Origin: Utricularia gibba
Lineage: Eukaryota > Streptophyta > Magnoliopsida > Lamiales > Lentibulariaceae
Length of the DNA stretch: 64,000 nt
Reading direction: 5' to 3'
Assembly (NCBI GenBank): GCA_002189035.1
Contig: NEEC01000015.1
Span: 682,001 to 746,000, forward strand
This document shows positions 4,908 through 61,802 of the stretch, in pieces. How positions within the stretch are numbered: position 1 is the first letter of the stretch; each line of letters begins with the position of its first letter. A program made the position numbers and the translations under genes. The notes below the pieces were generated by a model. It was given only the letters and a program-made list of their open reading frames with translations, did not search any database and was not told the DNA's origin.

Positions 4908-7173
4908 TCATTTTGAGCTTTGCTTGGAGAACTGCCATAGCTTTTTCTTGCAGACGATGATCTTCTCCTTGGAGCCACCATCCTCTCCGGTGTCCTGTTT
5001 CCGGCAGTTCCACCTCATTCCGGTGGCCAATGCCGTTATAGCGTCCACAAAGTGGCTCGATTCTCGGATCAAAGCGTACCCGTTTGGCCGGAGAATCCGA
5101 TCCATCTCTAGCATTACATGCTTCATTTCACATCTGTGATCATCCATAAACCAGTGGATCGAATTGCATTACCAACCACAGCATCTGGTGCAATGTTATC
5201 AGATCCATCCGATAAACTTACCGGTGACTCTCCGCCGTGAAAAGTCCATCAAGATGCAGAAGGTCATAAGTTCGTGGATACGTGGAGAACGCTTCACACC
5301 TGAAAGGCACAATCTAGACCATATTTTTAGTCGTCAGTGGCAGATATTTACGCAGAGCTTCGAGTTCTGGATACTGACCAATCATGATACGTCCCAATGA
5401 GTCCCCTGTCAAAAACCACCGGAAGTGAATTGGAAGCATACTCGGAAACAACATTCATGACCCACAGCGGATACTGAATCAGCGCCGCCGCGAAGCCGCC
5501 GTATAAGGTATTCATGTCCATCACGTTTCGTATCTCATTCGTGCCAATCGCCGGGAGCAACTTCTTGTACCGCTCCACACGTTTCAGCCACAACGCATCG
5601 TCAATTCGAAAGCCACCATCACTCCCGCCACGGAGCTCCGATAACCGCTCCGGTGGGCTGTGGAGCCTCACCGGCCATTTAGGTATCGATTCAAGCGCCA
5701 ATTTCCCGTACCTGGGATTAGGGTGAACGACGCAGGACCGCATGGGAACGTACCACGCGGCGTCTGGCTCCATACCGTCGTCGCACTTCGGAGGGTAGCT
5801 GTCGGGGGAAGTGATCTTCTTGTAGCAGGCGGGGTCGGAGGACTTCCTCCATACGGCGATATCATCTTTTTTGCTGTACAAATCGAAGCACAATGAGGTA
5901 AGTAGTTGTTGAAGCTTTTCATAATCTGTTCTCTGTTCTTCAATCGTAGTGTTCCATCCCCTCCACCGGTGCTCGTAGTTCACCGGCGGCCCTGACAGCG
6001 CCCAGAATCCTCCCGGGCGGAGAATCCGGTGGATCTCGAAGAGGTATATCCCCCTGTCAGCAAATGAAAACGTCTTACTTACATACCTCACTTGCTTGTT
6101 ATCAGGGGAGTCGCGTTGGTTACCGAATTCAGTCCATGGGATGAGGCATCTAGAGCAGTGAGCCAGATCAAAGGCATGAGAAGGAAAGGGAAGTCTCTGA
6201 GTGGATATAACTCCAAGCATCGCTGGAATCCCTCTCTCAAGAGCAAATTGAACTTGGGCTTCATGATTGTCTCTTGGAGCTACTGATATTGTCAGAATCC
6301 CATGATCCAGCAAATCCCCTCCCCAGCTCGCAACCTACTCCAAACACAAAGGAACAATTCTGATATAGCTTTTGATGTAGGCAGTATGTGGATTGTGCAT
6401 TGTTCTACTTACCCCGCAGCCTGTGTCAATGGCGGTCCTCACACCTCCATCCTTCATCTCTGGTATCAGGTCCTTCATCAAATTGACATACTGACTAACT
6501 CCATTGGGGAACATGGTTCCTCCACCAGGGAAAAGAAACTTGTCCCCCTGCTTTCTCAGCCAACGCTGGTTTGATTTCTGCGTATTTATCCAATCATATG
6601 GCACATTTCTGCAACACGCACACACACCACCATCATGCTAGACTCTTTTGGACACTCGAAGCAGGTGGAATAGTGGAATGAACGAGATAAGCTGCTCTAC
6701 CTGTACCAGCATTCATCTCTGCTCTTGGGCCACCTAATTGGCAACCTATACCCTTCAGGTGGAGGAATCAAGCACTCAAGCTTCTCAAAGGTTGGAGGGC
6801 AGTGCCTCTCCAGGAATGTTAGTCGGTAAAGGCTGAATTTTCTCCATCTCTGCACCCATAAGAAACCGCCGATTCATTTCTATCTAAGGATGTTGAGATC
6901 TGTTTAAGATATAACCTGAGGATCAGTGCAGGGAGTGTAGTCCTGGAAATCAAGGTTGCACTCAGGGAAACTAACGGGGAACCGAACAGGACCGGAGACG
7001 ATCAGTCGTTCTTCGACGCCCATGTCGTGTTCGTCATTGTTTCGACTGGAGCAATAGATCCCACCGAGGTAGAAAGAAACCCCGCAGAGCAGACACAGAA
7101 GTATGGCCTTGGAGATCACCGCGGGGGAGTTACGTTCCCCGGACAAGTTCAGTTTACCGTGTTTGTGCTTCAT
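4908..7173 (-). CDS. ERD3: Probable S-adenosylmethionine-dependent methyltransferase, PMT20/21 (ERD3) group
   Basis: Seven exons on the minus strand: 7173-6916, 6849-6701, 6608-6413, 6334-6124, 6053-5379, 5299-5222, 5133-4908. The product is about 597 residues. A short basic N-terminus is followed by one signal anchor (about residues 18-36, [14 protein letters not shown]), as in Golgi type II proteins. Family marks include FPGGGTMFP, the SAM-binding [24 protein letters not shown] and [13 protein letters not shown]. Such proteins are thought to methylate wall polysaccharides in the Golgi. The start was chosen at MKHKHGK because the anchor lies at the family's usual distance from it. The exons sum to 1793 nt, one base short of an open frame. 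The fault lies at the exon-5 acceptor, where the run at 6050-6054 has five C; six would restore the expected Phe-Gly-Gly-Ile-Tyr. Confidence 0.92.
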
Positions 7174-8328
7174 TTCGTGGGGATGGATGATCGATCTGGA
7201 GAATAAGGCAATGAGATCGATGATGCTCTCATTTCTGCTCCATTTTCTTCGATGAAGCAGCAATTCAAACTCAATGTGTTCGTTATTCACTTAGCCAAAT
7301 ATAGGAAACGTTGGTTGGCTTCATGTTTCCCAGACCCAGGTTTCTAGCTGGAACACAACAGAATCACATAATGCAACACACTTGCTACAGACGAAGGGTG
7401 GCAATATACGTTCCATCCAGTCTGAGTTTCACAACTGAAAGGCCATGATTAGCTAACAAATAGAAGTTGCATGCGTCTACGCATATTTGGGCCGGGCATT
7501 GTTGGCCCAGCATAGCTTATATATAATGGTCTTCCTGCCCTTTCACCTTCTAGGGTTTATTTGCAGACTGGAATGGTGCTCGAAGACAGTTTTTTTGTAG
7601 TTGTGGTTGATTTGCTGTTTTTTTTTTTTTCTTAAGTGGTGTTTCGATCTGTGAGGAAATTGCACTCTTGTCTTATGAAAGGCTTCGTCTTCTCGTTTCT
7701 GTTGAAATGAAAATAGACAAGCCTCTGAGGGAGAGTGCAGAAATCGAATGCTGATGGGAAAGTCAGCGGCGGCCAGACAACCGCTGAGATGGATCCACAG
7801 ATGATCGCCGCCTCCCCTTGGCCGATTGTCTACTAAATCCATATCACATTTTTTCTTGTTCCAGATTCGCCATTCAGAATGTTTTCTATTAGGGCTTTCC
7901 GAAACGGTTTGAAAGGGTGATGTGATTCAGGGTTGCGGTTTGTTTGGATCTTGATGATGTTCCTGTGTGTCTTTTGCAGCAAGAGACAGTCCAGCGCCAC
8001 CTTATGCTTAGCACCCCGTTGATCCTCATTGGTTTCTTTCCCCTTCCACGCCTCACTTTTGCACCCAAATCATGGTTACAGTTTTTCTGGGGTAATTAGT
8101 ATTTCCGTACAATCGTTTAGTTTCTGCGAACACTGCCTAACCAATGATCAGTGCATCATGCCATGGGGGTTGACTGGTATCAAAATGCTTGTGGAGGTTT
8201 CTTTGATTTGATATTTACATATGCATCTTGTGATGACTTCGAGGATGGGGACTCTCTGAAAGCCAGCAAGCCGAGGCCTCTTTTGCTGAACCAGGGGTTC
8301 TGACGGTCATGGTTTTAGCAGCCTCAAG
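7174..8328. other. Intergenic region with a possible plus-strand non-coding or short-ORF transcript
   Basis: Promoter-like elements near 7.5 kb imply a transcript starting near 7550. The only ATG frames beyond it are short (13-16 codons around 7700-7850), and no known protein was recognised. A T-rich run at 7618-7630 precedes them. I could not assign an RNA family. Confidence 0.35.
7484..7526. promoter_or_regulatory. GGGCC/GGCCCA elements and TATA between divergent transcripts
   Basis: TTGGGCCGGGC and TTGGCCCAGC lie within 25 bp, followed by TATATATAA at 7518-7526 and a telo-box-like TAGGGTTTA at 7551. This arrangement is common in promoters of plant housekeeping genes. It sits about 310 bp upstream of the methyltransferase ATG and faces a possible plus-strand transcript. 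Confidence 0.5.
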
Positions 8329-8696
8329 CAGCGTTTTAAATAATGGTTTGCCCGTCCAACCGGTGTAGTTTGCGGGCAGCGGTTGGACCGGCCAGACCGT
8401 GGTCAAACCGGTCATATCCGTTGCTCACTTTTTAAATATATTTTATAATAAATTTGCAATATTTCATTCTAATGCATATCTTCAAAAAATATCAACTTAC
8501 AAATAAGTGTATATTAGAATAATTTGATATCAAATTAAAGTCTCAACTCAAGATATCTAACTAAATAAATGTTCAGAAAACTAGGGTTTTATGAAAGTAA
8601 TGATATACAACTCGGGCCTCAACCCGACCGGTATGGTTACCGGGTACCGGTTGGACCGGCAACCCGCGCGATCTGACCGCAGTTTTTAAAACGCTG
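8329..8696. mobile_element. Non-autonomous hAT-type MITE, 368 bp
   Basis: It is bounded by perfect 12-bp terminal inverted repeats: CAGCGTTTTAAA at 8329-8340 and its complement at 8685-8696. Subterminal inverted GTCCAACCGGT-type motifs repeat inside both ends, and the centre is AT-rich. The flanks 8321-8328 (GCCTCAAG) and 8697-8704 (GCCTCAGG) form an 8-bp target duplication with one mismatch. A CAG-beginning repeat and 8-bp duplication are hallmarks of the hAT superfamily. There is no transposase frame, so mobility would need an enzyme supplied elsewhere. Confidence 0.85.
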
Positions 8697-10976: not shown

Positions 10977-11076
10977 CAAACTCAAGCTAACTAACCTGGT
11001 CAAGAAAAAAAATTAGTGTCAACCCAAGGCCAAGGGTTACCCTCCAATCAACATACAGGAACTGAGAAACAAGTTT

Positions 11077-14286: not shown

Positions 14287-15432
14287 TGTATCACATAATC
14301 TGGGATCCGATGGCCCTAATGTGCGCCAAACAAATTAGGTTTATAAATCATGTGTGACTCATGTACCAGATTTGTCTCTATAGTATTACATATTTTCCGG
14401 GTGATATTAATATTATTTAAAAATCCAGTTCATCTTGCTTTTGTTTTGGTTTTTTTTTTTTCTAAAACACTGGATATTAGTACTTTATTCTAAAATATTT
14501 GTATCATTTATATTCCAAAGATTTTTTCTACCCGATACAAAATAGTTAATATATAGAAAAATGCGAAAAATTAAATAAATCAATTACAATAAACTCTATT
14601 TTGGGAAAGAATGTGCATTTGTTATAAAATAGGAATTTTTTATTCTAAAAAATAAGAAATCAATATAAAATAAATCATTTTGATACTTTTAAATTTCTTT
14701 TCGAATTTTTAATTTTGAGGAACTCAAGAAATTGAAAGCAAAATCTATTATATGAAATATCATATTATTATAAAATAATTTCTGACTGTATAACAGAAGA
14801 TATTTATTAATTTACAATATTATTGTTATTTATATAGTATGTATGTAGAACCTAGGTTAAAATTTTTCTAATTTTGATAGTGATGGATAAAGTAACTTAA
14901 TAACTCTGAAACATAAATAAGATTTCAGGGTTGACATTCAAAAATGAAAAAAGATAACGACAGTTTTCCATTCATAAAAAACATTAATTTAAAAATGCGG
15001 ACGTAATTAATTACCAGAAAAGGCAATTTTAGGGCGGGATATTAATATGGAAAATCTGGAATCTATCCCAATATATATTATTTTAATCTATTCCAAATTT
15101 CAAACACGGAGTCAAATGTGAAAGGCGGCCAGTCGCGGTTGTGTTAATCGCATTTATGGGAAGATTGTTCATGGAATCAGGATCATATGGTAATAAATCC
15201 TGATTAGTCGTAACGTTTACTGAATTCAAATGGTAATTAGTGCCGTAATCCCAGATTACATGTACCCCTCATTATGCCCCCACATCCCGACGATGAATTC
15301 AAGGAAGGCGAAAAGGGAAACCGCCGGTTATTTCCTTTCAAGGGGAAGAACCGAGTCCAAGGAGGCGAATTCTGGGCATGCATTTGTTATAAAAGGGTTT
15401 CATGTTAATCAACAGTTAACCATTGTTGAGAG
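14287..15432. other. AT-rich intergenic region with TATA box for the aspartic protease
   Basis: Mostly AT-rich spacer with no gene seen. TATAAAA at 15388-15394 lies about 40 bp before the protease ATG and is its likely TATA box. Confidence 0.6.
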
Positions 15433-16844
15433 ATGGCTTCTATTTTCCTGCTGTTCTTGTCTGCATTCTGCTTCTTCTTCTTTGTTGAAGCTGGTGGGAA
15501 TGGAGGCATCACTCTGGATCTTATTCACAGAGATTCTAAGCATTCGCCTTTGTACAACCCTTCCGTGGATAAGTTTCAACGTTTCAGAAGGGCGATAGAT
15601 CGATCTTTCTCCAGGAAGTCATCTTTCACAGCAATGGCGGCTTTGCGGAAGTCAAAGGCTGTAGCGACGGATGCCTTCGGGACGACGCTGCGAGCCGGTG
15701 GCGGGGAGTATCTGATGAAGATTGATATCGGGTCGCCGCCGAGGGAAATTCTTGCGATCGCGGACACCGGCAGTGATTTGACATGGACGCAGTGCTTACC
15801 TTGCGACCAGTGCTACGATCAGGTGGCGCCGATCTTCGACCCCAGAAAATCTACTTCTTACAGAAGGGTCCCATGCGGTTCTGCGCTCTGCCAGGCTGCG
15901 GGAAGCACTTCGTGTGGCGAGAGGAATGAGTGTACTTATACAGTTGGCTATGGCGATCAGTCTTCCACCATGGGTGATCTTGCCACTGATACATTGACCT
16001 TCACTTCCAGCGTCGGGAGGACGGTATGGCTTTTACCGGTTGTCGCATGAAATTGGCTTGTGTAAAGTGTTCATGTTTTTTTCTCTGTGGGATCTCTTCT
16101 CAGGCATCTTTCCCGGGGTTCTCGTTTGGGTGCGGCCACCAGAACCAGGGGACCTTTAGCGCTAACGCCTCCGGCATTGTTGGCCTCGGCGGCGGCGAGA
16201 TTTCGATAATCAAGCAACTGAGAGATTCAATTGACGGAAAATTCTCCTACTGCTTGACATCAATCGACTCCACCACTACAAGCAAGATCACTTTTGGCGC
16301 ATCGGCCGATGTGAAGGGAGCCGCCGTCGTATCAACGCCCCTGGTTCAAAAAGATCCTGAAACGTTTTATTTCCTTACCCTGGAGGGGATCAGCGTCGGC
16401 TCCAGAGGAAACCGGCACCATCGCCGCCACCGCCGTTCGAGATCTGCGGCGGTTGAGGCGGGCAACATCATAATCGACTCCGGCACGACGCTGACCTACC
16501 TTCCGGATGATATGTATTACGAGCTTGAGTCCTCCGTGACGCGAGCCATTAAGGGGTATCGCCGCGTCAATGATACGGACAACATTTTCGGACTGTGCTA
16601 CGAGAAGCCCAGCGTCGGGACCTTCACGCCCCCACCGATTGTCGCGCATTTCACCGGCGCCGATTTGGTTCTTAGAGACGGGACTTTCCAGGAAGTCCAA
16701 GAAGGGGTGATCTGCTTCACATTTGTGGCGTCGCAGGATTTGGCCATCTTCGGGAACTTGCACCAGATGAATTACCAGATTGGGTACGATCTCGTGAAGG
16801 GCGTTGTCAACTTTCAGCCGACTGATTGTTCCAAATCAGGCTGA
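15433..16844 (+). CDS. Secreted pepsin-type aspartic protease, CDR1/nepenthesin-like
   Basis: Two exons (15433-16023 and 16104-16844) give 443 residues. A hydrophobic signal peptide occupies about residues 1-20. A propeptide-like region includes LDLIHRDSKHSPLYNP, typical of the CDR1 group. The catalytic motifs are DTGS at 111-114 and DSGT at 322-325. The nepenthesin-type insert with paired cysteines (CLPCDQCYD) follows the first motif. Such proteases are apoplastic, and CDR1 acts in disease-resistance signalling; that role here is inference. An Arg/His-rich stretch (RGNRHHRRHRRSR, about 298-310) between the lobes is an odd insertion that might be a processing site. The 80-bp intron has standard borders. 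Confidence 0.93.
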
Positions 16845-17269: not shown

Positions 17270-18432
17270 CTAAATTCGACTTGGAACACGTGGCAAAATA
17301 TGAATGGACGGAGCTTGTAAATGTGGCGGACTTTCCACTATCCAGACCCTTCTCGCCGTCGCCGCCAGATCCACCACGGCGATGTTCATTCCGTCGCCAC
17401 ACAGCACACACACTTTCCCACACTCCGCCGCCGTGATCTGCAAAGCCCCTTTCAGAATCTCATCCTCGAAGACCTCCGTCCACTTGTCGTGGACCTCGTC
17501 GTACAATTTCAAACAGCCCCTCGATTCATCCACCACGAAAATCTGCTCCTCTGCCATCGCTGTCGCCGGACCTCTCCAACCTGAAAGCATCCCCTCTGGC
17601 ATATCCCCCACGAGTCCTTTTTCACATCGTAGATTATCCCTTCTTTCGCCCCATCGCCTTTCACGTTTACCATACACAGTTTACCCTTCCAACCAACCGC
17701 CTGGATTTCGTCGCGGCTGAATTTCCCGTTTTTTAGACTCTCCAATTTTTCCCATTTCCACGGCGGGGCGGAACCCAGATCCCACTTCTCCACCAATCTC
17801 GCTACATCGGTGTTGTAATTTGACCCGATTCCACTCGCCACATATACACCTCCCTGAGAAGCTCCGGCGGCGCACCATCGTCGTGGGGTGGAGAAATCGG
17901 GTCCTTGCGTCCACTCCATCGATAAAGGATCAAAAATCAGTGGATGGGACAGCGCTGGGAGGAAGTCATCGTTGGTGGCGGCGAGGATCACGAGTTTCCC
18001 ATTAACGGTCACCGATTGAATCGGCAGTTTCCGGGAGATGAACGACGCGTGACGGAGGAGAACTCTGATCGGAGGATGGAGGATAGGGAGCCAAGTTTGG
18101 GAGATCGGATCGAAGGAGTGCAAGTGCAAAGTCGTGGAGACGTGCCTTCGAGAATCGGCGGGATGAAAAAGGGCGTAAATGGATTTGAAGGGAGGGAAAG
18201 AAGGTGAGTAGATCAGGCGGCGCCATGAACGGGAAACGGAGTAAAGAGTCGTGGGAGGGACACGCCTGAGACATAGCTCGGCGAGATGTCCGGGGATTCC
18301 TGGAATGAGATCTTGATGGTGGCGGTGCTCGTCGCCGATATCGAGGGCCCCCTCTTCTTCTTCCCCGTCACGGCGGCGGTGAAGCTTCGGAGAGTTACGT
18401 TTTCTGGCGGAGAGGGAACCGGGACGAGACAT
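17270..18432 (-). CDS. F-box/kelch-repeat protein, SKIP25/KUF1-like (frame interrupted)
   Basis: Intronless gene. The F-box core is LIPGIPGHLAELCLRRVPP near residue 40, followed by WRRLIYSPSFPPF. Kelch-type repeats come next (PRRWCAAGASQGGVYVASG, DMPEGMLSGWRGP). Family role: substrate receptor of an SCF ubiquitin ligase; SKIP25/KUF1 relatives act in karrikin-type signalling and light responses. The N-terminal two-thirds and C-terminal third lie in different frames. They join at KKDSW/GDMPEGM, where the plus-strand run at 17605-17609 has five C. One further base would give a 387-residue product. Both sides remain well conserved, so a sequence error is more likely than decay. The start at MSRPGSL is the first ATG giving a normal-length N-terminus. 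Confidence 0.85.
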
Positions 18433-18854
18433 GTGTGGAAAAGTAGAGGGGCTCAAAAGTTCACTTTTGGTAATGAATGCATCTCGTCGGCATGCTAGTT
18501 TGTGCCTGGCAACAGGCAAAGGGTGGGGGCCCTTTGCTTTAATTGTCCATGCAGTTTTGTTTCCATCCCATACCCCGTGCACAGCTAAACAATTTGAAAG
18601 AAGGCAATGGAGCAAAGCGACAATGTACCAAGCTGTCTCAGAGAACTAAAGACAGAGTAGCAAGCATCACACATCGGCAACTGGTGCGGGAAAGGTAAAA
18701 AACAAGCTCCCCACAAATGGGGGAGAGAGATCGTCCTTCAAAAAGGAGGTTTCACCCACGTCTGAAATAGAGAAAACAAGACAGTATTTAGGAGAAAAGC
18801 ATTGCCATTCACTCTGCAATAGATGGAAGTAGATCATTGTTCAACCTTACCATA

Positions 18855-25250: not shown

Positions 25251-25515
25251 ATGAATCGGAAATTCGGCGGCGGGAAGCAGCCGACGGGGACTCCGTCACT
25301 GGCATGGTCATGCGTTGTAGTAGTAGCGTCACTTCTAGGCGGCGCTTCGCTTGTGCACAACATCTACAAGCCCGATCTGGTAACGTGTTTTCCCCTTCCA
25401 AATGTTCGACGAAATGCCCAGCACACCCGAAAAATAACAATGCCTTCATACTGCAGACAATCCCCCAGCTGGAAAAATCAATGAACCGGCCGAGGAGCAA
25501 AATGAGAAACTATAG
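25251..25515 (+). CDS. Small single-pass membrane protein of unknown function (frame interrupted)
   Basis: Two exons, 25251-25379 and 25457-25515. The N-terminus MNRKFGGGKQPTGTPSLAW leads into a hydrophobic segment (about residues 20-38, SCVVVVASLLGGASLVH) and then NIYKPDL. In exon 2 the run at 25462-25466 has five C. One more base gives TIPPAGKINEPAEEQNEKL and a stop, a 62-residue protein with an acidic tail. As written, the frame runs into unrelated sequence. I infer the corrected frame because its tail is compact, polar and ends quickly. Topology suggests a mitochondrial or endomembrane protein with a short basic head. I recall similar plant proteins only as uncharacterised. Confidence 0.65.
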
Positions 25516-26394
25516 TTCCTGCGCTGCGATCGGGACTATAAGCATCGGATCGTGGTTCGCCGTGATCTGCGCAGACTAGCAGCATGCCGATAATCTCTGA
25601 ACTGCTTCCTTGTTATGTATTTGCAGTTTGACCTCCCAGCGACCTCCTTTTTTTTAATAAAAAATTCAAAATATATAATATTAAAAATTATTAAAGTCGA
25701 TTGGTCTTCCTATTTTCATAAGTATATAAATCATAATATAAAATTAAGTTTATATCTAATCAAGAATTGATGAAGATAAGACTGACAGAATAAAAATAAA
25801 CGGGTTTGGAATAAAGGCTATGTGAAAAGACGAAAAGGTCCTCCTCCGTCAGCTACATGAAATCTTGAACTTTGTTGTTTGCCCATGGGAAGAGTTCTTT
25901 GAGTTCCTTCTGCAGATGTCGATTTGGGATGTTCGACGTTCAGGTGGCCGCTGCATTCATTTTTCTTTATTTTGATTTGCATTTATTCATGGGGATTGGA
26001 ACACCGCTAGTCTAATCATTCGCTTCGCTATCGCTGTTTTTTTCATACCTAGATCGGTTGACTTATCGTGTGAAAGAGAATCGGATCTCTGTCGTTTCTC
26101 ACCATTTTTTTGTTTTAAAAAAAGGGATTTCTTGGGGACGATATTTTTCGGTGAATCCGTTCCAGCGATACGTTTTAGCGGTGCTGTTGATGCTATTCTG
26201 TGGAAATGAGAAACCTTTAATTTGTGTTGGATGCTATTCAGGGCGTTTTTAGTGAAGAATTTGAATTTGGATATGGGTAGGAATGGGATTTTTGTGTGTG
26301 TGTGTGATTAAACTGTCTCTCGTTTGCTGATAATGAAAGATGTTTTATTTGAAATTTCGTGTTCATTGATTTCGTATTGGTTTCTATGTTCTAG
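25516..26394. other. Spacer, promoter and 5' UTR intron of the DUF1644 gene
   Basis: 25620-25830 is AT-rich. CGACGTTCAG ending near 25944 and followed by GTGGCC could end a leader exon. CTAG at 26391-26394 would be the matching acceptor, placing an intron of about 450 bp in the 5' UTR. A GT-rich microsatellite-like stretch occurs near 26290-26308. Confidence 0.4.
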
Positions 26395-26439: not shown

Positions 26440-26451
26440 AACTTGGAAAGT

Positions 26452-27537
26452 ATGCTTGTGCTGGCAGATGGACACCCTCCAGAAAGTAAATTGATGGAGG
26501 ATATGGCGGCGTGTGTTAGCTGGAATGACGTTTTGTGTCCTATATGCTTAGATGTTCCACACAACTGCGTTCTCCTCCAGTGCTCATCATACGAACGGGA
26601 TGCCGGCCTTTTATATGTGGTACGGACCATTTGCATTCCAATTGTTTGGAACGCCTTAAGGAAGCAAATGGCAAGTCCTCTGGCTCTCAGTCACCTAGCT
26701 CTGTTGAAAGTGCTCAATTTGCTGATCCCGCACCTGAAGGGTTGCTATTCTGTCCCTTGTGCCGTGGAGAAGTTACTGGGTGGGTGGTGATTGATAAAGC
26801 TCGATTGCATTTGGATGTCATGAATCGTAATTGTGAAGAGGATAACTGCCGGTTTTCAGGAAACTACTTTGAGCTTCAAAAGCATGCTCAGCTAGAACAT
26901 CCTCATGCTTGTCCGGCGAAAATTGATCCAGCTCGGAAACTGGATTGGGATAATTTTCAGCAGTCTTCAGAGATTATTGATGTTTTGGGGACCATTCACG
27001 CAGAAGTTCCCAATGGGGTTGTTCTTGGTGATTATGTGATTGATTATGGGGGTTACAACTCTGGAGATGATTTTGATTTTCGTGATCGAGTAGGAAAATG
27101 GTGGACCTCTTGCATATTTTGTAAGGCACTTGGGAATTTTAGGAAATCAAGGAACAGAAGAAGATCAAGGGTCAGAAATTCTGCAGCAAAGAACTATCAT
27201 TTTGGAGATCTCGAGTTCACTGAACATGGAAGGTGAGCCAGTGTTGAAGCACTCAACTGAAAATTCAAAATTGATCTAAGACTTATGCTGATCATTTATT
27301 TCCTACTCGAAATTAACTGAAGTTATTGTCTCACAGCATCCCACCGCGTCACTCTACTATGCTTCGTATTGATGAGGTAAGTATATTCCTCTGTCATATG
27401 CATTATTCTGTTACACCTGATTCTCTCTTCCACTAACGTGGATAAAAATACATTTTTTGTGAATCGGTGTGCTTGATCGATGTTGGTTTTTCCCATTGCA
27501 CCAGCTAACATTGTGTATTTGTTTAATCTAGGTATAG
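26452..27537 (+). CDS. DUF1644 zinc-finger protein (frame interrupted)
   Basis: Three coding exons, 26452-27232, 27337-27376 and 27532-27537, for about 275 residues. The conserved DUF1644 head is DVLCPICLDVPHN with LLQCSSYERGCRPFICGT, resembling a RING/U-box-like Cys pattern. CPLCRGEVTGW and a C2H2-like CRFSGNYFELQKHAQLEH follow. The frame changes after SSYER: the run at 26597-26599 has three G, and a fourth restores Gly-Cys-Arg-Pro. The exons sum to 827 nt, one short of a multiple of three. DUF1644 proteins are plant-specific nuclear proteins, some reported in stress responses in rice. The tail (RIDEV) is made by a 2-codon third exon. Confidence 0.82.
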
Positions 27538-28223: not shown

Positions 28224-30246
28224 TCATGAACCACCTACACCCCCCTTGTGTTTCTCACCAGGTTGGTGCTGATTATCTACTGTAACCACCTTGTTCATCT
28301 TGAAGCTTCCCTGTTTCATGGGCTTGGGATGGAAAAGGGACATGAAGATTTTCTCTATTGATTGAGCTGTGTACTTGATATACTTGCCTTCACCTTGATC
28401 TTGCTCCACCAATGGACCGTAATTCTGCATGTAGCTACGGTAGATGGGTACTACTGTCTGAATCATGTCCTTGCAGATTCTATCCCTGAGGTCTTCCTCA
28501 GGTATAATCCAGATGGATTGCTTTTGATACATTTTGTCAAAAGCTTCATTGAAAGACTTCAAGCGCTGCTTCACCAGAGTGCGGGCGGTTTCGCGCCCGC
28601 CGGAGAACAGGATCAGTCCTTCCCGGCTTAGAAGTGCAGGCAGCTTCCCCAGCTCTCTCGCACGAATGCAGCAGCGTAATACTCCTTGAACTCTTCCTGC
28701 TCGCTTAACCATGAATCTCCAAGAATCATGCCGAGCTTCGTTCCTTTGAGATGCTTGAACAAATGCCAGTGATTGTTCATCAAGAACACGCAGGAAGTAA
28801 CAGCATCATGGTAGCCCTTGGCCCATGTTTCCAGATTCAACTCAATGGCTCTGACCAGGCTCACAATCTCTTTGATGAGACTTCTTTCATGGAACTTCAC
28901 TTGCTTCCAGCTTTTCTCAATTTCAAGAACTTGTACTAGAATTGGCTTATAGTCATCTCCCAGAAGCTTACTACAGTAATCTGTAATAAAACTCACTGCT
29001 CTTGGAACACTACAATCCGACGGTGGGGTGTCTTTCTCTGCAGCTCAACTTGAACCAGCAGTTCCCAGAAAATCTCGCAGGCCCCTTGGATCACCCCCTT
29101 GATCAGGTCCCTGGTTAGGTTTTTTATCTCTGCACACTCGGGACCGCCGAAGAGCCTGTTGAAATCCAACCTCAGTCTGTTCAATGATGCAAACATGTCC
29201 AGTAGATTCAGTAGCTTGATGGGAACCTTTTTACTTTCAGCCACTGTTTTCCCAAACTGCAGAAAAGAAACAATTCCTGAAGAGGCAGCTATTTTGGCAA
29301 AGCAACTCTTCCACACATCCAATCCCATCCTCTCAAACATATCACTACAAAGCTTATACTCCCTTTCAAACAAATGCTTAATAGAAAACTCCAAATGCCT
29401 GCCCCATTTCTCTACATAAATCTCCTTATCAGCTGCGGCATTGAACTCAGAAATCGACAATTCGAGATAGTGCAGATCAAGTGCCTGCAAACTCTCCCTC
29501 ACAGTTGAACTTCGGGTTTCGACATAAATGGAGATGCACTTGTCAACTCTCTTGCGCATATTCAGCCAACCTAAAGTTGCTTGCAACTTATGAATTATGG
29601 GTTCAGGCATTGGAGATGCAGAGATTGAAGGTTCTTCATTCATTGAATATGATGCAGAGGACATCAGATATGGAGCACTGTTCTCTTTTAGAAGGCGATG
29701 AAACTCATTCTCTAGTCTATCCAAGCCTGCATCAAAAAGACCTCCATCAAGACGACCCTTTTGATCACCTTTATCAAGCTCCTGCAAATCAATAAGTGCC
29801 TTCTTTAATCCAGAAGTAAAGCGTGTATCAGCCACCTTATGATCCTCCAAATACTCGACGATACCGGCTAGCCATTGGATTGCCATCACACAATTCTCTC
29901 CTAAGAACGCCAAAGCCTCCTCAAGACGTTTGAGTACACCGAGATAACCTGGAAGATCAGTTTGAGGATCAAAGAAGGATTTTTCCAGGACATGAATAGC
30001 ATCAAAAACCTTGAGAACTGCAGTTGCTGGTACAATAGCTCTGCTAATATGTTCTGCAACAGCACTGAGTGCGTCACGCTGGGCCCAAATCGGCCGAATC
30101 GCGACTTCAAGCGACGGCAATCGATGGTTAATCCCATCGAATCTGCACCCAACTCTATCCAAAGACGACCCAAGAGCTTTGGATTGCTCCAAACAAGCTT
30201 TCACTGCCTTCGTAGCAGACACCACGTGCTCAATGCCTGCATCCAT
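28224..30246 (-). CDS. EXO70: Exocyst complex subunit EXO70 (frame interrupted twice)
   Basis: Intronless minus-strand gene of about 674 codons, normal EXO70 length. EXO70 tethers secretory vesicles to the plasma membrane by binding phosphoinositides and is important for wall deposition. Conserved stretches include FERMGLDVWKSCFAKIAA, FGKTVAESKKVPIKLL, EIFWELLVQVELQ, VSFITDYCSKLLGDDYKP, MNNHWHLFKHLKGTKLG and SYMQNYGPLVEQDQ. The open frame breaks at 29025-29028 (four G on the plus strand) and at 28647-28650 (four C). One extra base at each point rejoins VELQRKTP to PSDCSVPRAVSF and RESWG to KLPALLSREGL. Adding two bases gives 2025 nt, an exact frame. The subfamily is uncertain. The start MDAGIEHVV gives the usual N-terminal coiled-coil rod. 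Confidence 0.9.
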
Positions 30247-31019
30247 TGTTCCCCGCACAAACAAACAACTTTCCACTTGTTCCCCCTCAATATAAAAACC
30301 AAAACATTTCACAGAAATCAATCTGGGTTATCGCAAAAGAAATCAACTTCCATTCCTTTTCTGTTCTCTACCCTTCCACAAATGCGCTTCACCTATCAAA
30401 AAGCACACGTCTCGAGACAGGGGGGAAATCTTCCAGAAGTTTCAACTACCCGCAACTAAATTAAATCGGCAATTTACTCCGTGTATGGACATTTACAGCC
30501 TGCCTGGAGTATAACCACCGGCCCAAATAACAATCAGAGCAACCCAGTCAAAGAAAAGCAGGCCTTGTGTGGTTGCAAAGAAGATATCATTTCCGCTTCG
30601 CGAACCCTAAGTTTGCAGAACAAACACACTGAAAGAAAGCGCTCGGTGCACCAGTTCAATGTAGTTGCGGATGGTGTCGACATTCACTTGTCATTTTCTC
30701 TTCGCCAGAATCGCCAACCCCAAAGTCAAAAATCCGGTCGCCTGATAAAAATTGCACAATCTGCTGACGAAGATTTTCAGCAATGGCGGAATATCGTGGG
30801 GCCCATGGGGCTGCTACCTACCCACGACCCCACTTCCCCACGACACGTCTTGCACAACCGCTAAATTTAATCTTAAAATAATTTGATAAAATAAAAAAAG
30901 ATGTCCTCGGAAATATTATATTAGAAATAATATTAAATAATAGAAGATAAATATTTGATGATTATAAAAGTAATATCCAAAAGAGTCTTCGCAAAGGCAA
31001 GTGAACATAAGAAGATCTC
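30247..31019. other. EXO70 promoter region and spacer
   Basis: A CGGCCCAAAT element occurs at about 30519-30528. The rest contains short frames only, and 30870-30970 is AT-rich. The right end is the 3' flank of the convergently oriented transporter gene. Confidence 0.5.
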
Positions 31020-33592: not shown

Positions 33593-34621
33593 ATGGCTTT
33601 TCCCACACTGCTTCTCCTTCCCCTCGTGCTCGCTTCTTCCATCCGTTCTCTTGCAGATAACTTCTACGATCACTGCAGACCTCTGTGGGGTTTTAATCAC
33701 ATCTCCGTTAATCCACAGGCCACTGAAGTTCAGCTGTTGATGGACCAGTCGTCTGGTAAACACAGAGAATAACCATTCAAGCCGTGATTTTTCTGCTTTT
33801 GTGAGAGTGTTTGACATGAAATGCAGGTGCTGGGTTTCGCTCGAAAGCAGAGTTTGGGTCTGGTGTGTTCCGCATAGACATGAAAATACCCGAAAAAAAG
33901 ACTGCGGGGCTCGTACCCAACTTCTACGTAATTGAATTACGATCATGTTTTCAATGCTCCATATGCGAATATCTTCTGTGATGGGTGAATCTTGTTTACA
34001 GCTTACTTCTGCGCCGGACTATCAAGACCCTGGGAACCATTTCGAGATAGACTTCGAGTTCTTGGGCACAACTGGTGTGCTCCAAACCAACGTATATGAT
34101 AACGATCAGGGTCACAGAGAGCAGTCCTTCAAGCTTCCATTCGATCCCTCTCAGGAGTTCCACACTTACGAGATCATGTGGAATCCGCACCTCATACTGT
34201 ACGTATTCGTCTTCTCTTTAGAGTTTCCTTCCCAGAACTCCATCTTCTACTTTGCATGCACAGGTTTCGAGTCGATGGAGTTGCGATAAGAGCGTTCCAT
34301 AACCTCGCGAACAGGGGAATACCCTACCCGAGGTTGAAGATGCACGTGGAAGCGAGTTTGTGGGCCGCATATTGGGCTGGCCCAGTAGATTGGTCCTTGG
34401 CCCCATTCACTTCACACTACTCGAACTTTCAGTTATGGGCCTGCGAGGCCCGAGGTGAAGATATCCAGGAGTGTGGGTCCCAAGGGTACCCCTGGAATCG
34501 ACAGAAGTCTCTCACCCAGAGAGAGAGACAACAAATTGCGGCGTACAGAAGGAGTTTCATAGTTTACGACTACTGTGGGGGTCCCACCACACGGAAGGCC
34601 GAATGCCACTTTAATTACTGA
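33593..34621 (+). CDS. Xyloglucan endotransglucosylase/hydrolase, first of a tandem pair
   Basis: Four exons (33593-33755, 33827-33927, 34002-34198, 34264-34621) give 272 residues. A signal peptide (about 1-20) precedes DNFYDHCRPLWG. The GH16 active site reads HFEIDFEFLGTT. The nucleophile and acid/base Glu and the middle Asp are kept, but the Asp that usually precedes this motif is Phe, and the N-glycosylation site usually found just after it is missing. The C-terminal XET_C part has paired Cys and ends YDYCGGPTTRKAECHFNY. These secreted enzymes cut and rejoin xyloglucan in the wall. The divergent sequence means substrate preference is uncertain. A paralogue with identical intron positions follows. 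Confidence 0.9.
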
Positions 34622-35009: not shown

Positions 35010-36119
35010 ATGGCTTCCTCTGCCTTCTCCTCAGCCCTCTTAGTCTTGGCCTTTGCTCTTGCCTTGTCAACCCAACATGCCTTTGCTGACAATTTTTTCA
35101 CCTACTACAAGCCTCTGTGGGGGTTAAATCACATTACGATTAACCCAGCGGGCACCCAGGTGGATCTCTTGATGGATCGATCCTCAGGTTAGGACAGCTT
35201 TTCGTTAAAATACGTTCTTGGAACTGAACGGTTCAGTCTGTTGTATTGTTTGGTGAATGTTTTCATTGTCAAATGCTCTAACACGCTGAGAAATGAATGC
35301 AGGCGCCGGGTTTAGATCGGTTGCGGCTTTCGGGTCGGGTGTGTTTCGTGTGAGCATGAAGATCCCACAGCAGAAGACGGGAGGACTCGTGCCGAACTTC
35401 TATGTAATTCCATAGTTGATTTGAAACTGTGAATTGGTTTTTTGACGTCTGTGATTTGGATTGCCCTCCATTCCATGCATGCAGCTTATCTCGTCGCCTC
35501 CTGATCCCGATTATGGGAACCATTTTGAGCTTGACTTCGAATTCCTGGGCACCACCGGCGTACTGCAAACCAATGTCTACGACAACGATCAAGGCCATCG
35601 CGAACAGAAATTCAAACTTCCCTTCGATCCGTCTGCAGATTTCCACACCTACGAGATATCCTGGAACCCCTTTCTCATAGTGTACGTCCTTCACTCCCTC
35701 GATCCGTCTCATAGTTTGTAACATGAAGTCAGTAGAACTTCACGGTGTCTGCGTACTGGCAGGTTCCGGGTGGATGGAGTGCCGATTAGGGTTTTCAGGA
35801 ACAACGTGCATCGTGGGATTCCATTCCCATCGCATGCAATGTACGCGGAAGGAGCTTATGGGACGCGGACTGGGCTGGACAGGTCGACTGGTCCAAGGCC
35901 CCATTCGTGACCCACTATAAGGATTTCGTGGTAGAGGCCTGCAGGGCGCAGAGTAGCACCAACATACAAGAATGCGCCTCTTTGAGGCACCCTTGGAATA
36001 AGAAAACGGATCTCACCCCACAAGAGAAGGCACAGATGCAAGCTTACAGGCGTTTCATTACTTATGACTACTGCGCCAGTCCCAAAACCAGGAAGCCTGA
36101 GTGCAGTTTCAATAACTGA
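35010..36119 (+). CDS. Xyloglucan endotransglucosylase/hydrolase, second of the pair (frame interrupted)
   Basis: Four exons: 35010-35187, 35303-35403, 35485-35681, 35763-36119. The intron phases match the upstream paralogue. The signal peptide is MASSAFSSALLVLAFALALS. The active site is HFELDFEFLGTT, with Ile replaced by Leu relative to its neighbour. Exon 4 is 357 nt against 358 in the paralogue. The frame changes near 35852, where GAAGGAGC would need GAAGGGAGC to read Glu-Gly-Ser-Leu-Trp-Asp as in the family. With that base the product is 277 residues and ends KPECSFNN. The sequence on both sides is intact, so I treat the gene as functional with a sequence error. Role as for the first copy. 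Confidence 0.87.
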
Positions 36120-48203: not shown

Positions 48204-49558
48204 TTATACTGTTAATGATGAGTTTTTGGTGGAAATTAGGAGCCTCAGCTCCTCCAAATGTTCATCATTTGAAATGTGAAGCACCACTCGAAGATTCGTC
48301 AACAGTGTCTCCTGCTCCCATGTTAAAGGACCAGAAACAAATAAAGCCTGTAGAGTGCATCGATAAGCATGCAACTCTAACCAGTGTATACTCACCTCCA
48401 ACTCTTGGCGGTTGGGAGGTGAAGGAGAAGCATCCCTATCTGACTCTGAACCACAACACGACTCTGCATCACTACAAGTTGAGTCTGCCTCTGCGCATGT
48501 TGCGATCACAGGAAATGTGTAACAGCAGTTCACGCCACCCTGGCTAGTAATACTGCAACTTCCAACAGAACAAGCATCCTTGTCATCAATCCTTAACTCC
48601 GTGTTCCTGGACTCAGCGAGGCCAATATGATTATCATGCCTTGCCCTCTCCATTTGATTATATCTGATAGATATAATGTTATTGGAAGCATGCATGTTCT
48701 GTTCACCCAAAATTGGGTAAGCAACAGCATGTACCTTTTCAGGAATCACGTCAGCAGCCATTTTATTCTTCTTTCCTTTTTTCTCACTATTCTAAATTTT
48801 TGTATATGTCTAGAAGAGTTGCGATTTGCAGTTGACGAATCAAAGGGCGACATCCGCTTTCTGGATGGCAAAGATATCTCAGTAGGCTCCCTAATTGAAG
48901 TATCATCGTCGTTGTAAACATTGGTTGCTGCCAAATAACCAGCTGCTCGAAAATTCTACATAAAGCAGAAAGTTAGGTGTCACCATTGTAATGATTTTCC
49001 AGCAAATGCTTGAAAGATGCAAAAAAATAAATAAATAAAGATGTCATGGTTAAAAAATGTTCACAGGAAAAAGTATTTTTAGAGGAAACAAAGGCATACC
49101 TTCTCCATTAGAATCCATGTGTCATCATCCCAGGTTCTTCTCATCCTGATATTTGATATGTCAACAACTAGTTGGCATGAGCGTCCCAGTAACCTGACTA
49201 AGTATCGAGATCCAGACAAAGCAGCTTTCTTATAGGCCGTGCTCCTTCTACCAGCATGCTGAACTCGCAGAACCTTTAGAATAGCAGCAGCCTTCCACGA
49301 ATAATCATGAAAAACCTCCACAACATCTCCAGCATCAAAATTCTCAGTTCCATGCTCCACCATCACCTTAGAAGGGGATGGTCTAAGACAATCTACTGGA
49401 ATGTCTTCAACAATTCCATCAGTAGCCATACCGGGATATAAGTCATACTGCACAGTGCAGGTGTGAACATGAGACGACAATATCACAGCAGGTCGCCAAG
49501 AAATTGGCATCTCCTCGTCATTCATAACCTCCACTCTGTCGCCTTTTTTTAATCTCAT
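48204..49558 (-). CDS. Agenet (Tudor-like) and ENT domain protein
   Basis: Coding blocks 49558-49100 and 48955-48204. The N-terminal exon carries two Agenet-type Tudor modules (MRLKKGDRVEVMNDEE, then GDVVEVFHDYSWKAA). The C-terminal block ends with an ENT (EMSY N-terminal) domain, ELEVSIHWLELHAYRC through LTWEQETLLTNLRVVL. Such plant Tudor-like proteins are thought to bind modified histones or RNA in the nucleus. The middle frame changes near 48796-48800. Either one base is missing (FRNSEKKGKKNK would then join the halves, giving about 403 residues) or a short intron ending in TTTAG is removed. A leader exon ends at 50039, with a 5' UTR intron 50038-49592. Confidence 0.8.
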
Positions 49559-56161: not shown

Positions 56162-57856
56162 GTCGGTTGGAAAGGAAACTCGGAGGAAGGCGCCCTCGTG
56201 TAGGCATAAAGCTTCGCAAACTGCATGAGGAGATTACGTGGCGCTGGCGGAGGTGTCAAACGTGTACCTCAACGTCCAGTGGGCTGTCGTTAGTCATTCT
56301 CCCAAAATAATACATACTATTTTTATCGCGTATTAACTTGACCAAACAGCCCCTAATAATAGCAAGTAGTTCAATGCGCCGTACACTGTCGGGCTTGTTC
56401 GAATAGACATGGATATGGGCCTGGTCCGTAAAGCCCATGGGCTACATGGCGCTTAAATCGTGCTCTTCATATTAGCACAAATAAAAATATTCAAATATCT
56501 AACAATAATAATAATAAAACCATGGGTCAAGGTTTGGAGTTAAACGCCATTGACTTTGGATCATATTAAATGTTATTTCCATTGTCCATAGTTTGATTTA
56601 AAATAGTTTCTGAAAAAACTATTTTAAAAAGAATTATGTTTCTAAACACGAATGGTTTTTGCATAAATAATAATAGAATTTTAGATATATAAAAATATAT
56701 ATAAATCCAATTTTTCATTTTCTTTTTATAAAACCAACAACCATTTCTCTTAACATCCACAAACAAATAAATACCTTTAAAAAATTTATTTTCGAGAGCA
56801 TCATGTCATCCCATGTTACACCATCATACCTTCATCCTCAGCAGTCAACGCATTTGGAAGCTTGCAGCAGTCAACTTGGTGCAAGAATGAACCATGGCAA
56901 ATAACAACGCCCTGAGGCAATACTACTCTACGAAGGGGTGTGATAATCGGGGCAGATGCATGCATCCTGCGGACACACATCCTTTCTTTACTGGTCTACC
57001 TCACTCGTGTCTGCGATGATGTCAGCACGTGTGGAGTTGAATCTTGAAAGTTAGTTAACTCTTGGTATATGAAAGGTCGTTACTCGTGTCGCCGCAACAG
57101 AAGAAGCTGCAGAGTCCCTGCAAATGGTCAAATACACGAGTGAAGAACGAGAGAAACGCTGTTTAAGAAGTGTACTCGTCAAAAGATTTTGCACGTATCA
57201 CGGCACAAAAAAACGACATATGGAAATATAGAGATTAAAGCTCTCAAAATTTTTTTGTGGGTTATGTTTTTACTTTTATTTTTATTAAAAATAATTTTGA
57301 ACAAAATAATGCTTATTTTTATTTTTTTTAACAAAAATATTTTTTAATATAATTAAAAATAAAATTAGAAATACAAATACAAAATAGTTATTATATTTCT
57401 TATTTCTATTTTTGAAGTTAAATTTTCAAAAATATTTCTATTTCTGTAATTTTTTCACGATACTACATTTTTGTTTCTATTTATTCAAAAAAATTCTATT
57501 TTTACTTTTTACTTTTGAAAAAAAATAAAGAACATTCAAAAAAATTTTAATAACACTCCGCTATTGTTCTCAGCTTTTCAAATCTAAGTTGTAAATATTT
57601 TCTCAAAACAGGACAAGCTTCCGAATAAGAACAATTGCAGAGTAGAATCAAATGTTCCTGAACAAAGCCGGGAACCAGATAGCCTGCACTGTATGCTCCC
57701 CGTGAAATACCCCAGATGCATTATGGTTTCAACATCATTTGCATCGGCTCAGAAAAACTTTGACCTTTGGCATCATTTGCTCGGCAGTCGGCTCTATATA
57801 TTATTTCCTTGTCCTTTGGCATTCGTCACCACCATTCTTCTCTATTTCGGTCTCCC
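56162..57856. other. Intergenic region and expansin 1 promoter
   Basis: Housekeeping-type elements near 56420 serve the minus-strand gene. 57240-57560 is A/T-rich with homopolymer runs. CTATATATTA at about 57793-57802 is the likely TATA box for the expansin whose ATG is 57857. Confidence 0.55.
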
Positions 57857-58859
57857 ATGGCCTCTGTAGCCGTCGCCCTTCTTCTACTTTCGCTCTTCGC
57901 AGCTGGTTCTTGTCAAACGGGGTCATGGCAGAACGCTTACGCCACCTTCTATGGCGGCAGTGATGCCTCAGGGACCATGGGTTAGTTGTTTACAATGTCC
58001 TCATCCGCTTGATAAGATCTGTCATTGTAATCTGAACTTTCGAACACTAACATGTCGTTATATTCTGTTCACTCTGTCGAATCCAGTCATCTTTTTTTTT
58101 TTTTGATGGGGGAAATGCATGGGTGCAGGGGGAGCATGTGGCTATGGTGACTTGTACAGCCAAGGATACGGGACAAACACGGCGGCGCTGAGTACCGCTC
58201 TGTTCAATGACGGTCTAACGTGCGGTGCTTGTTATCAACTCCGATGCATCAACTCCTCAGGCAACTGCCTTCCGGGAACAATCAGGGTCACTGCCACCAA
58301 CTTCTGCCCCCCGAACTACAACCTCCCCAACGACAATGGTGGCTGGTGCAACCCGCCCCGAGTCCACTTCGACTTGGCCCAGCCCGCTTTCACCAGGATC
58401 GCCCAGTACCGTGCCGGAATCGTCCCCGTTTCCTACCGAAGGTGATCATGGGAACAGCAATAATAAATCTAACTCATCTTGCCCATCACATGCTCCATTT
58501 CAGCATCTTTTATATGTTTGTTCTTAGACATGTCATACTGAACGGCATGCCCACAGGGTCCCGTGCGTGAAGAACGGTGGGATCCGGTTCACGATCAACG
58601 GCAACTCTTACTTCAACCTGGTTCTCATCAGCAACGTCGCCGGCGCCGGCGACGTTCAGGCAGTTTCGATCAAGGGATCGAAGACCGAGTGGCAAGCCAT
58701 GAAGCGAAACTGGGGGCAGAATTGGCAAAGCAACGCGCTACTCGTTGGCCAGAGCCTCTCGTTTCAGGTGACCACCACGATGGGAAGACGGTCACGAGCT
58801 ACGATGTCGTCCCCGATTACTGGCAATTCGGACAGACATTCGAGGGCGATCAGGTCTAG
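57857..58859 (+). CDS. Alpha-expansin, first of a tandem pair (frame interrupted near the C-terminus)
   Basis: Exons 57857-57980, 58129-58441 and 58557-58859. The signal peptide is [19 protein letters not shown]. The double-psi barrel has [19 protein letters not shown], the Cys ladder and the HFDL motif; the CBM63-like C-terminal domain follows. Expansins loosen walls non-hydrolytically in the apoplast. After SLSFQVTT the frame shifts at about 58777: ACCACCACGATGGG lacks one base relative to the neighbour's ACC-ACT-AGC-GAT. With it the protein continues [20 protein letters not shown] and ends after EGDQV, 246 residues. The last residue is Val where family members end in Phe. Confidence 0.9.
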
Positions 58860-60776
58860 CAGCTCACACAGCAATTGTGCGTGCACATTAACATGAAAAA
58901 TAATCAACATATCGCCGTAGGGCGACGAAGCCGCGGCGGCCGGAACGCCCGCTTCTTCTTACTGCTGGTGTTTGATTACCGTTAGTTAATCTGTTTACTT
59001 GTCTTGAAACCAACTATCAATAAACTGCATTCCCACCAAAACTAATTATCAGAAATCGAAAAAAAAACCCTTTGGATTCGGTTTAATTCAATAACGCACG
59101 TGCTCAATCCAATATTTTACCACGTGGGGCATATTCCTGGAGCTGAAGTTTTCGCTGCGAATGACACTATCAAATCTGCGTGACGACTTACGGGTCATCA
59201 AAACGACGCCGGATTCTAAAAGACAGTGGACCTCTAGCCCTAATATTGCATTTTCTATTGGAATTATTTAAATAAATGTATATTCCAAGCGTGGATCTCC
59301 CGCTTCGCTCACGGGGCTTAAACTTCATTGACTAGAGTGACGTGGAATGTTCGCTTTTTTATATTAATTCTGAATTTACAAAAGAAAATGGGAACACTTG
59401 TTTCACTTTCATTTCCTTTGCTTCACGTTTCAGATACTAAACGAAATTAATTTACATACAATAAAAAATTAAATATATTTCGTAAAAAGTATTAATTATG
59501 ATGAGTTTGACATAACATTTTATAATTTTATCAATATGTAATATTTATGAACATTTTATGAGATATTGAAAATATGTAACATTACATGGAATATTATCAA
59601 AATACTCAATTTTATGAGATAAAGATAAAAATTACAAAGTAATAACGTTATGTAATATTTTGAAACCTCATAATGTTTCACGATTTAATTGTATCCTAAA
59701 ATTTAGACGATGATTTGATCATCATAAAGAATTTTCTGATGATAAAATTGATTAAGCTGTTACTCGTGCATGTGCCACGTAAAAAATGTATTTATTGGGT
59801 TGAAAATCAACCAAAAATAAATTCATAAAATATTTTCTTCAGGTACCATCCGTAGTTTACGTTAGTTTTCTGCCGACTTCTATTTTTAATGGCATTTCGG
59901 TCACTTGCACGAAACACGGGAAGTGAATTTGATTGTATAGTTGGCCAGAGTTGGAGTTTGTGACATTGCATTTGCTTGTTTAATTAAAGCAACGCGTGCC
60001 TCCGGTGCCTATTGACTTTTGGGCACGTTAAAATGTTACTTCCCTAGGCCATAGTTTTAGGGCTCTACATTAGAAATAGCGATAGGGTTACCAATTCCAA
60101 ATACCCCTACCCCCTACCAGGAGCATCATGACATGTCCGTAATTGCATTTTACGGAATACCTTGTAGTGATTTGTTATAGAAAAAAAAGAAGAAGAAGAA
60201 GTAGCTGCATGACTTTTGATATCAACTTTTCTATTAGAACGAACAATATCACATTTAGAATTTAAAGTGAATTAGTTAAATGTATTAAAAATTATAAATT
60301 ACTATTAATTGATTTGATTTAATTTTTTAATATGATTCATATTTTTTATATACTTGTGTTTCATTTTTCATGACTCATGTGTGATTGTTCGATTTATCGA
60401 ATCCTTAATTTCAATATTTTCTAAACATAGATGATGTTTTGAGTCTCCATTCAAAAATGTCTCACATGGAAGTAGTATTCCATTGTCTGTTCTCTGGAAC
60501 CTCAGGCGTATGCACCAAATTCATTGTCTTTTGTCGCTTTTTAGAGCAGTGGGCGTGATCGTAGGGCGGAGGGTTGGATTCACTCCCATGGGGTAGACTT
60601 TGGGAAATGGGGCAAGTGCATGTGCTCTCAGACGACTTCATTTTCTTTTTATTTCTCCCCTCGTCAGCTCCATTCCCTAACCGCTTTCTGTCCTCTCCAG
60701 GTGTATAAATATGTTATCTTCCGCTTCAGCATTCATCGATGCCATTCTCCTGCGCTCTTCTTCATTTCCCTCTTCA
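58860..60776. other. AT-rich intergenic region, expansin 2 promoter
   Basis: No gene seen. 59400-59800 and 60230-60420 are strongly AT-rich. TATAAAT at 60704-60710 fits a start site near 60735. That makes the ATG at 60777 the likely translation start and excludes the in-frame ATG at 60711. Confidence 0.55.
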
Positions 60777-61802
60777 ATGGCAGGAGTAATCGTCGCCCTC
60801 ATGCTCCTTTTCCTCTCCGCCGGTGGGTCGGCGCAGAACGGAGATTGGCACAACGCTTACGCCACTTTTTACGGCGGCAGCGATGCTTCCGGAACCATGG
60901 GTGAGTGTTTATATAAATTTCTTTCGTAGCTTTCAATACGAAACACAACGCTGTGAGGAAAATAGAGGCTATGGATTAAATTTGATAACCTTAGTTTATT
61001 AGGGTTTTTTTTTTTTGCTTTTTTTCTAATAAAAATATATCATGAAGGATATGTCCATGAGCATAGGTATGCTTCCTATGATGTCACATTAAGGTCTAAA
61101 TTCAATGTTGCGTATTGCAGGGGAGCCTGTGGTTACGGTGACTTGTACAGCCAAGGATACGGTACAAACACGGCAGCGTTAAGTACTGCCCTTTTCAACA
61201 ACGGCCAAACATGCGGCGCTTGTTACGAACTCCAGTGTGTCAACTCGCCGGGAAACTGCCTCGGGGGAGCATCATCGTCACCGCCACCAACTTCTGCCCG
61301 CCGAACAATAACCTCCCCAACGACAACGGCGGCTGGTGCACCGCCGCGGGAGCACTTCGACCTCTCCCAGCCCGCCTTCACGCAGATCGCACAGTACCGT
61401 GCCGGGATCGTCCCCGTTTCTTACCGAAGGTGACGCTGATGCCTGACGAATCGTCTATGCTTTGAAACAGCAACTTCGCTAAACTTTTGATGTACCAGGG
61501 TTCCGTGCGTGAAGAAGGGTGGGATCCGGTTCACCATCAACGGCCACTCGTACTTCAACCTGGTCCTCGTCACCAACGTCGCCGGCGCCGGCGATGTCCA
61601 AGCGGTTTCGATCAAGGGATCGAATACCGGATGGCAGGCCATGGCGCGAAATTGGGGGCAGAATTGGCAGAGCAACTCGTTTCTCGACGGACAGAGCCTC
61701 TCGTTCCAGGTCACCACTAGCGATGGCCAGACTGTCACGAGCTACAACGTCGCTCCGGCAAACTGGCAATTCGGACAGACATTTGACGGCGGCCAGTTCT
61801 AG
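60777..61802 (+). CDS. Alpha-expansin, second of the pair (frame interrupted several times)
   Basis: Exons 60777-60900, 61121-61429 and 61499-61802. Signal peptide [19 protein letters not shown]. Domain content and intron phases match the first copy, and the C-terminus is the normal FDGGQF. Exon 2 is 309 nt against 313 in the paralogue. One base is missing at its first G run (61121-61123), one in the five-G run at 61263-61267, and two near 61337-61345. Between the breaks the residues ([19 protein letters not shown]) are perfectly conserved. That is hard to reconcile with a pseudogene and fits uncorrected base losses. Restoring four bases gives 246 residues, as in the paralogue. Confidence 0.85.

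What the first reader, a model, noticed from the sequence alone, without database searches (positions are those of the whole stretch)
4908..61802. Recurrent single-base losses in G/C runs break at least eight otherwise intact genes
The methyltransferase, F-box-kelch, small membrane protein, DUF1644, EXO70 (twice), second XTH and both expansins each show a frame break. Adding one base, usually to a G or C run, restores a full-length, conserved protein of exact codon length. The Agenet/ENT gene may be another case. Breaks are always losses and the flanking protein is undamaged. This pattern fits residual long-read assembly error. If it were real, eight neighbouring genes would have been disabled recently and simultaneously. 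Automatic annotation of this window will therefore fragment these genes.
Basis: partly seen in the sequence, partly recalled or inferred. Interest (0 to 1): 0.75.

Follow-up and report, generated by a model that had tools for sequence, protein, structure and literature searches.

The report
Frame breaks from long-read consensus errors
Eight genes in this plant window look broken because the assembled sequence is one letter short in places, mostly inside runs of G or C; the same fault recurs across the whole genome assembly, so these are almost certainly sequencing errors and not dead genes.

Summary
The frame breaks are real features of the assembled sequence. Frame-aware alignment to relatives in the same genome confirms single-base losses in the methyltransferase, DUF1644, EXO70 (twice), second XTH, both expansins and, newly, the Agenet/ENT gene. 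The F-box-kelch break is supported less directly. The small membrane protein is undecided, because an unbroken reading also exists. The second event in expansin 2 is net -2.

The pattern is not local. Outside the window the same kind of -1 break appears in 9 of 21 other expansins, another EXO70, a paralogous methyltransferase, two KCS genes, two BAHD genes and a K+ transporter just beyond the window. In about 55 kb of aligned coding sequence I found 20 net -1 events, one net -2, no credible gains and no stop codons. G/C runs of four or more lie within 7 bases of 67% of breaks (10% of background); A/T runs show no excess. Purifying selection holds on both sides of breaks.

This fits residual homopolymer deletion error in a PacBio/HGAP/Quiver-type assembly (contig sizes match Utricularia gibba). 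The window is worse than average, and several of its breaks lie outside G/C runs, suggesting an extra local quality dip. Accurate reads, the decisive test, were not available.

The parts
5402..7173 (-). Methyltransf_29 gene (plant putative SAM-dependent methyltransferase); frame break net -1 at about 6047-6054, just after a 70-bp intron, in a G/C run
   Evidence: 261/352 aligned positions identical to the reference taken from the C412:2.226 Mb copy, no stops; related copy L002 has no break
17270..18645 (-). F-box-kelch gene; frame break net -1 at about 17604-17609, in a run of five
   Evidence: Kelch hit in the first frame; distant C3 paralog aligns on both sides of the break in two frames
25251..25579 (+). 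Small membrane protein; claimed break at 25462-25466 is undecided
   Evidence: intron ending just before the run; both an in-frame and a shifted reading are open; ohnolog lacks a recognisable second exon
26452..27236 (+). DUF1644 gene; frame break net -1 at about 26590-26594, not in a G/C run of four or more
   Evidence: 216/266 identical to intact C1 ohnolog; Ka/Ks 0.17 upstream and 0.20 downstream of the break
28251..30258 (-). EXO70 gene; two net -1 breaks at 29025-29028 and 28644-28650, both in runs of four
   Evidence: the only gaps not a multiple of three between 28277 and 30258 against the intact C1 ohnolog; Ka/Ks 0.12-0.19 in all three segments
33626..34621 (+). First XTH gene (GH16); intact, local control
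   Evidence: three introns, no frame break
35010..36119 (+). Second XTH gene (GH16); frame break net -1 at about 35846-35852, not in a G/C run of four or more
48204..49557 (-). Agenet/ENT gene; frame break net -1 at about 48786-48790, not in a G/C run
   Evidence: intact at this place in the C3:2.7066-2.7084 Mb paralog
57893..58859 (+). Expansin 1; frame break net -1 at about 58774-58778
   Evidence: 163/235 identical to a reference built from other expansin loci, no stops
60804..61802 (+). Expansin 2; net -1 at 61263-61267 (run of five) and net -2 at about 61338-61341; together they restore the frame
   Evidence: 168/237 identical to the reference, no stops

Best explanation
The breaks are errors in the consensus sequence, not mutations in the plant. 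The long-read assembly undercounts short homopolymer runs, above all G/C runs of five to seven bases, by one base, so a coding frame is lost wherever such a run lies in an exon. Shown: the direction, context, genome-wide spread, and intact selection around the breaks. Inferred: the platform (PacBio continuous reads with HGAP and Quiver, species probably Utricularia gibba) and that accurate reads would show the longer runs. In this window an additional local quality dip probably adds random single-base losses outside runs.
For: (1) In about 55 kb of aligned coding sequence there are 20 net -1 events, one net -2, no stop codons, and one apparent gain that sits at an exon junction and is an alignment effect (sign test P about 2e-6). 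(2) G/C runs of at least 4 lie within 7 bases of 67% of breaks against 9.9% of coding positions; A/T runs 4.8% against 10.9%. Of about 300 G/C runs of four or more, 14 are next to a break; of about 340 A/T runs, none is the site of one (Fisher P 2e-5). (3) Assuming the lost base came from the adjacent run, the affected share rises with original length: 4, 2%; 5, 14%; 6, 29%; 7, 2 of 3. (4) Five other expansin copies (L007, L009, L017, L019, L021) and expansin 2 break at the same Asn-Pro-Pro codons. (5) Single -1 breaks at G/C runs also occur in EXO70 L036, methyltransferase L003, KCS L078 and L079, BAHD L075 and L077, and a K+ transporter 7.4 kb past the window end. (6) Ka/Ks 0.07-0.20 on both sides of breaks. 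(7) Two contigs that represent one locus (C430, C414) differ over 9 kb by 5 substitutions, 9 single-base indels and one 4-base indel, indel-rich for true allelic variation. (8) A PacBio HGAP_3 plus three-round Quiver bacterial assembly of about 3.2 Mb had 561 single-base homopolymer deletions against Illumina reads (PMC4888979), about 0.18 per kb. (9) Genome size, contig N50 near 3.42 Mb and a 6.8-Mb contig fit the published U. gibba PacBio/HGAP assembly.
Against: No reads, RNA or second assembly of this plant could be checked. Several window breaks are not in G/C runs of four or more, so one mechanism does not cover all. Differences between the redundant contigs were mostly in A/T runs, unlike the coding breaks. 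I found no paper stating that this pipeline loses G/C more than A/T. Base rates vary: other EXO70 genes have 0.035 breaks per kb, the non-expansin window genes tested 0.96 against 0.06 elsewhere (P about 7e-4), although those window genes were chosen because they looked broken.
Confidence: 0.93

Rival explanations
1. The genes are real, recent pseudogenes in this plant, inactivated one by one.
For: Small plant genomes lose genes, and paralogs exist for most of the affected families. One BAHD-like fragment at C412:526.4-527.4 kb does look like a genuine decayed copy with several lesions.
Against: No stop codons and no credible +1 events accompany the breaks. Selection is intact on both sides. 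11 of 23 tested expansins and one KCS copy with 358/387 positions identical to its intact paralog would all have died very recently by the same lesion type.
Confidence: 0.03
2. A real mutational process: the sequenced clonal stock has a slippage or repair defect that shortens G/C runs.
For: Length-dependent loss in runs is also what polymerase slippage gives.
Against: A repair defect should hit A/T runs at least as much and give gains too; A/T runs of four or more were untouched. Nearly half the expansins would be disabled in a living plant.
Confidence: 0.02
3. The frames are restored in the cell by programmed frameshifting or transcript slippage.
For: A conserved codon site is hit repeatedly in expansins.
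Against: Breaks are at unrelated places in unrelated families, and many expansins are unbroken at the same codons.
Confidence: 0.01

Closest known systems
Residual homopolymer deletions in PacBio HGAP/Quiver consensus (e.g. Enterococcus faecium ATCC 700221, PMC4888979)
   Same: [quoted passage not shown] breaks of the same kind here at 0.04-0.7 per kb by family outside the window
   Different: Here seen through coding frames in a plant; a strong G/C bias that the paper does not discuss; not confirmed with short reads
Errors in long-read assemblies that affect protein prediction (Watson and Warr 2019, cited in PMC7006217)
   Same: Consensus indels split genes and mimic gene loss
   Different: A general warning; this is one measured case inferred from sequence alone
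Ordinary unitary or duplicate pseudogenes
   Same: Reading frames are interrupted
   Different: No mixed lesions, no stops, no relaxed selection

Membership tests
Long-read homopolymer consensus error | Events are single-base losses, not gains or substitutions | tested here: met
   20 net -1, one net -2, no credible gain, no stops
Long-read homopolymer consensus error | Events lie in homopolymer runs, risk rising with run length | tested here: met
   67% against 9.9% near G/C runs of four or more; share affected 2%, 14%, 29%, 67% for lengths 4-7. Not met for several of the window events
Long-read homopolymer consensus error | Found across the assembly in unrelated genes | tested here: met
Long-read homopolymer consensus error | Independent consensus of the same locus disagrees mainly by indels | tested here: inconclusive
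   C430 against C414: 9 single-base indels and one 4-base indel against 5 substitutions in 9 kb, but mostly A/T
Long-read homopolymer consensus error | Accurate reads show the longer run | not testable with these tools
   No reads held
Pseudogene | Mixed disabling lesions (stops, gains, losses, larger gaps) | tested here: not met
Pseudogene | Relaxed selection | tested here: not met
   Ka/Ks 0.07-0.20 either side of breaks; pairwise values cannot detect a very recent loss

The most novel reading that the evidence does not exclude
The plant really carries shortened G/C runs throughout its genes, from a recent strand-slippage or repair defect specific to G/C runs, and tolerates it.
Probability: 0.02. 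Interest if true: 0.85.

Novelty: not a real feature. Interest (0 to 1): 0.22.

Why it matters
If this is the Utricularia gibba PacBio reference, gene counts and gene-loss claims built on it need care: 11 of 23 expansins tested carry such a break, and families written with long C and G runs are hit most. The run-length dependence gives a simple rule for telling such false losses from true ones. One published loss, the N-terminal truncation of DCL3, was checked by its authors with 5' RACE (PMC8333044) and is not called into question here.

Tried and rejected
No redundant contig was found over 17-37 kb of the window, so that part has no second consensus; the search over 45-64 kb scored too few candidates to decide. 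For the small membrane protein no relative with the second exon was found in the genome, so the claimed break stays open. The F-box-kelch gene has only a distant paralog; the extra frame shifts that alignment proposed elsewhere in the gene are alignment noise, because the frame is open there. I suspected that the published DCL3 truncation might be another such error; the authors had confirmed it by 5' RACE. The chaperonin family was searched to find a single-copy essential gene with a break; the table was too fragmented by introns to decide. The flank to the left of the window has almost no long open frames. Paper searches did not find a source on G/C against A/T bias in Quiver consensus.

Full report
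WHAT WAS CHECKED. The window is G000:C412:682001-746000 in a plant assembly of 100.09 Mb in 516 contigs. I wrote a protein-to-DNA aligner that allows frame shifts and GT-AG introns and used relatives from the same genome as references (onward). This tests the frame without altering the sequence.

THE WINDOW BREAKS. A syntenic duplicate block on C1 (6.616-6.639 Mb, 64-81% DNA identity over the aligned pieces) holds intact ohnologs of EXO70 and DUF1644. Against these, EXO70 shows two net -1 breaks, the only gaps not a multiple of three between 28277 and 30258. DUF1644 shows one. The methyltransferase breaks right after an intron; a related copy on C4 is intact. The second XTH is broken, the first is intact. 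Expansin 1 has one break; expansin 2 has a net -1 followed by a net -2, which returns it to frame. The F-box-kelch break agrees with a distant paralog. The small membrane protein is undecided: an intron ends just before the run, and an unbroken reading is also open.

IT IS GENOME-WIDE. The same treatment of other copies gives net -1 breaks in 9 of 21 other expansins (10 breaks in 14.7 kb), in 1 of 15 other EXO70 genes (28.9 kb), and in one of two other methyltransferases. KCS copies on C4 and C402 and BAHD copies on C412 and C375 each show one, and a K+ transporter just beyond the window changes frame between its two domains. In the family tables most EXO70 and many KCS and BAHD matches lie in single open frames, so broken genes are a minority outside expansins.

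THE PATTERN. In the 55-kb coding set there are 20 net -1 events, one net -2 and no stop codons; the only apparent gain (XTH L065) sits at an exon junction and is an alignment effect. G/C runs of four or more lie near 14 of 21 breaks against 9.9% of positions (P about 5e-10), while A/T runs show no excess although they are as common. If one base was lost from the adjacent run, the share of runs affected rises from 2% at length four to 29% at six. Expansins are hit most, probably because conserved Asn-Pro-Pro and Gly-Gly stretches are written with long C and G runs; expansin 2 and five other copies break at the same Asn-Pro-Pro place.

SELECTION. Ka/Ks in every EXO70, DUF1644 and KCS segment, before and after the breaks, is 0.07-0.20. 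A gene dead for any length of time would show decay. Pairwise values cannot exclude very recent death, but that many deaths, all recent and all by the same lesion, is implausible.

THE SOURCE. Contig sizes (a 6.82-Mb contig; N50 about 3.42 Mb from the lengths seen; and later locus tables) fit the Utricularia gibba PacBio/HGAP assembly (88x, N50 3.4 Mb, PMC5793159; 6.8-Mb unitig, PMC8333044). The species name is inference. A bacterial assembly made with HGAP and Quiver contained 561 single-base homopolymer deletions in about 3.2 Mb (PMC4888979), similar in kind and density.

WHAT DOES NOT FIT NEATLY. The window is worse than average: the non-expansin window genes tested have 0.96 breaks per kb against 0.06 elsewhere (P about 7e-4), though they were chosen because they looked broken. 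Several window breaks are outside G/C runs of four or more, while those elsewhere are all near runs of three or more. I read this as a local quality dip on top of the general run error. Two redundant contigs differ mainly by single-base indels, but mostly in A/T. No reads were available, so the verdict rests on pattern.

VERDICT.

Noticed in passing
window 18.9-32.7 kb and G000:C1:6615797-6639078: A syntenic duplicate block (64-81% DNA identity, inverted) that carries intact ohnologs of EXO70 and DUF1644; a good reference for annotating the window.
   Followed up: partly
L072 (G000:C3:2706600-2708400): The Agenet/ENT paralog itself appears one base short in a run of three near its start, another possible case of the same error.
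   Followed up: partly
L074 (G000:C412:526400-527450): A BAHD-like fragment with several frame shifts and low identity looks like a genuine decayed copy, in contrast to the single-lesion genes.
   Followed up: partly
L085:7410-7430 (G000:C412:753410-753430): A K+ transporter just right of the window changes frame between its membrane and C-terminal domains at a run of three.
   Followed up: partly
L070 and L071 (C430 against C414): A 19.8-kb contig is a near-identical second copy of part of C414, differing mainly by single-base indels; with C187 against C4 it suggests leftover redundant contigs.
   Followed up: partly
G000 contigs C1, C2, C409: Lengths are exactly 8,500,000, 6,192,500 and 2,492,500 bases, multiples of 2,500, which hints at trimming in fixed windows.
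   Followed up: no
window 15430-16844: An aspartyl protease (TAXi domains) is split over two frames that overlap; it looks like an intron and not a break, but this was not tested.
   Followed up: no
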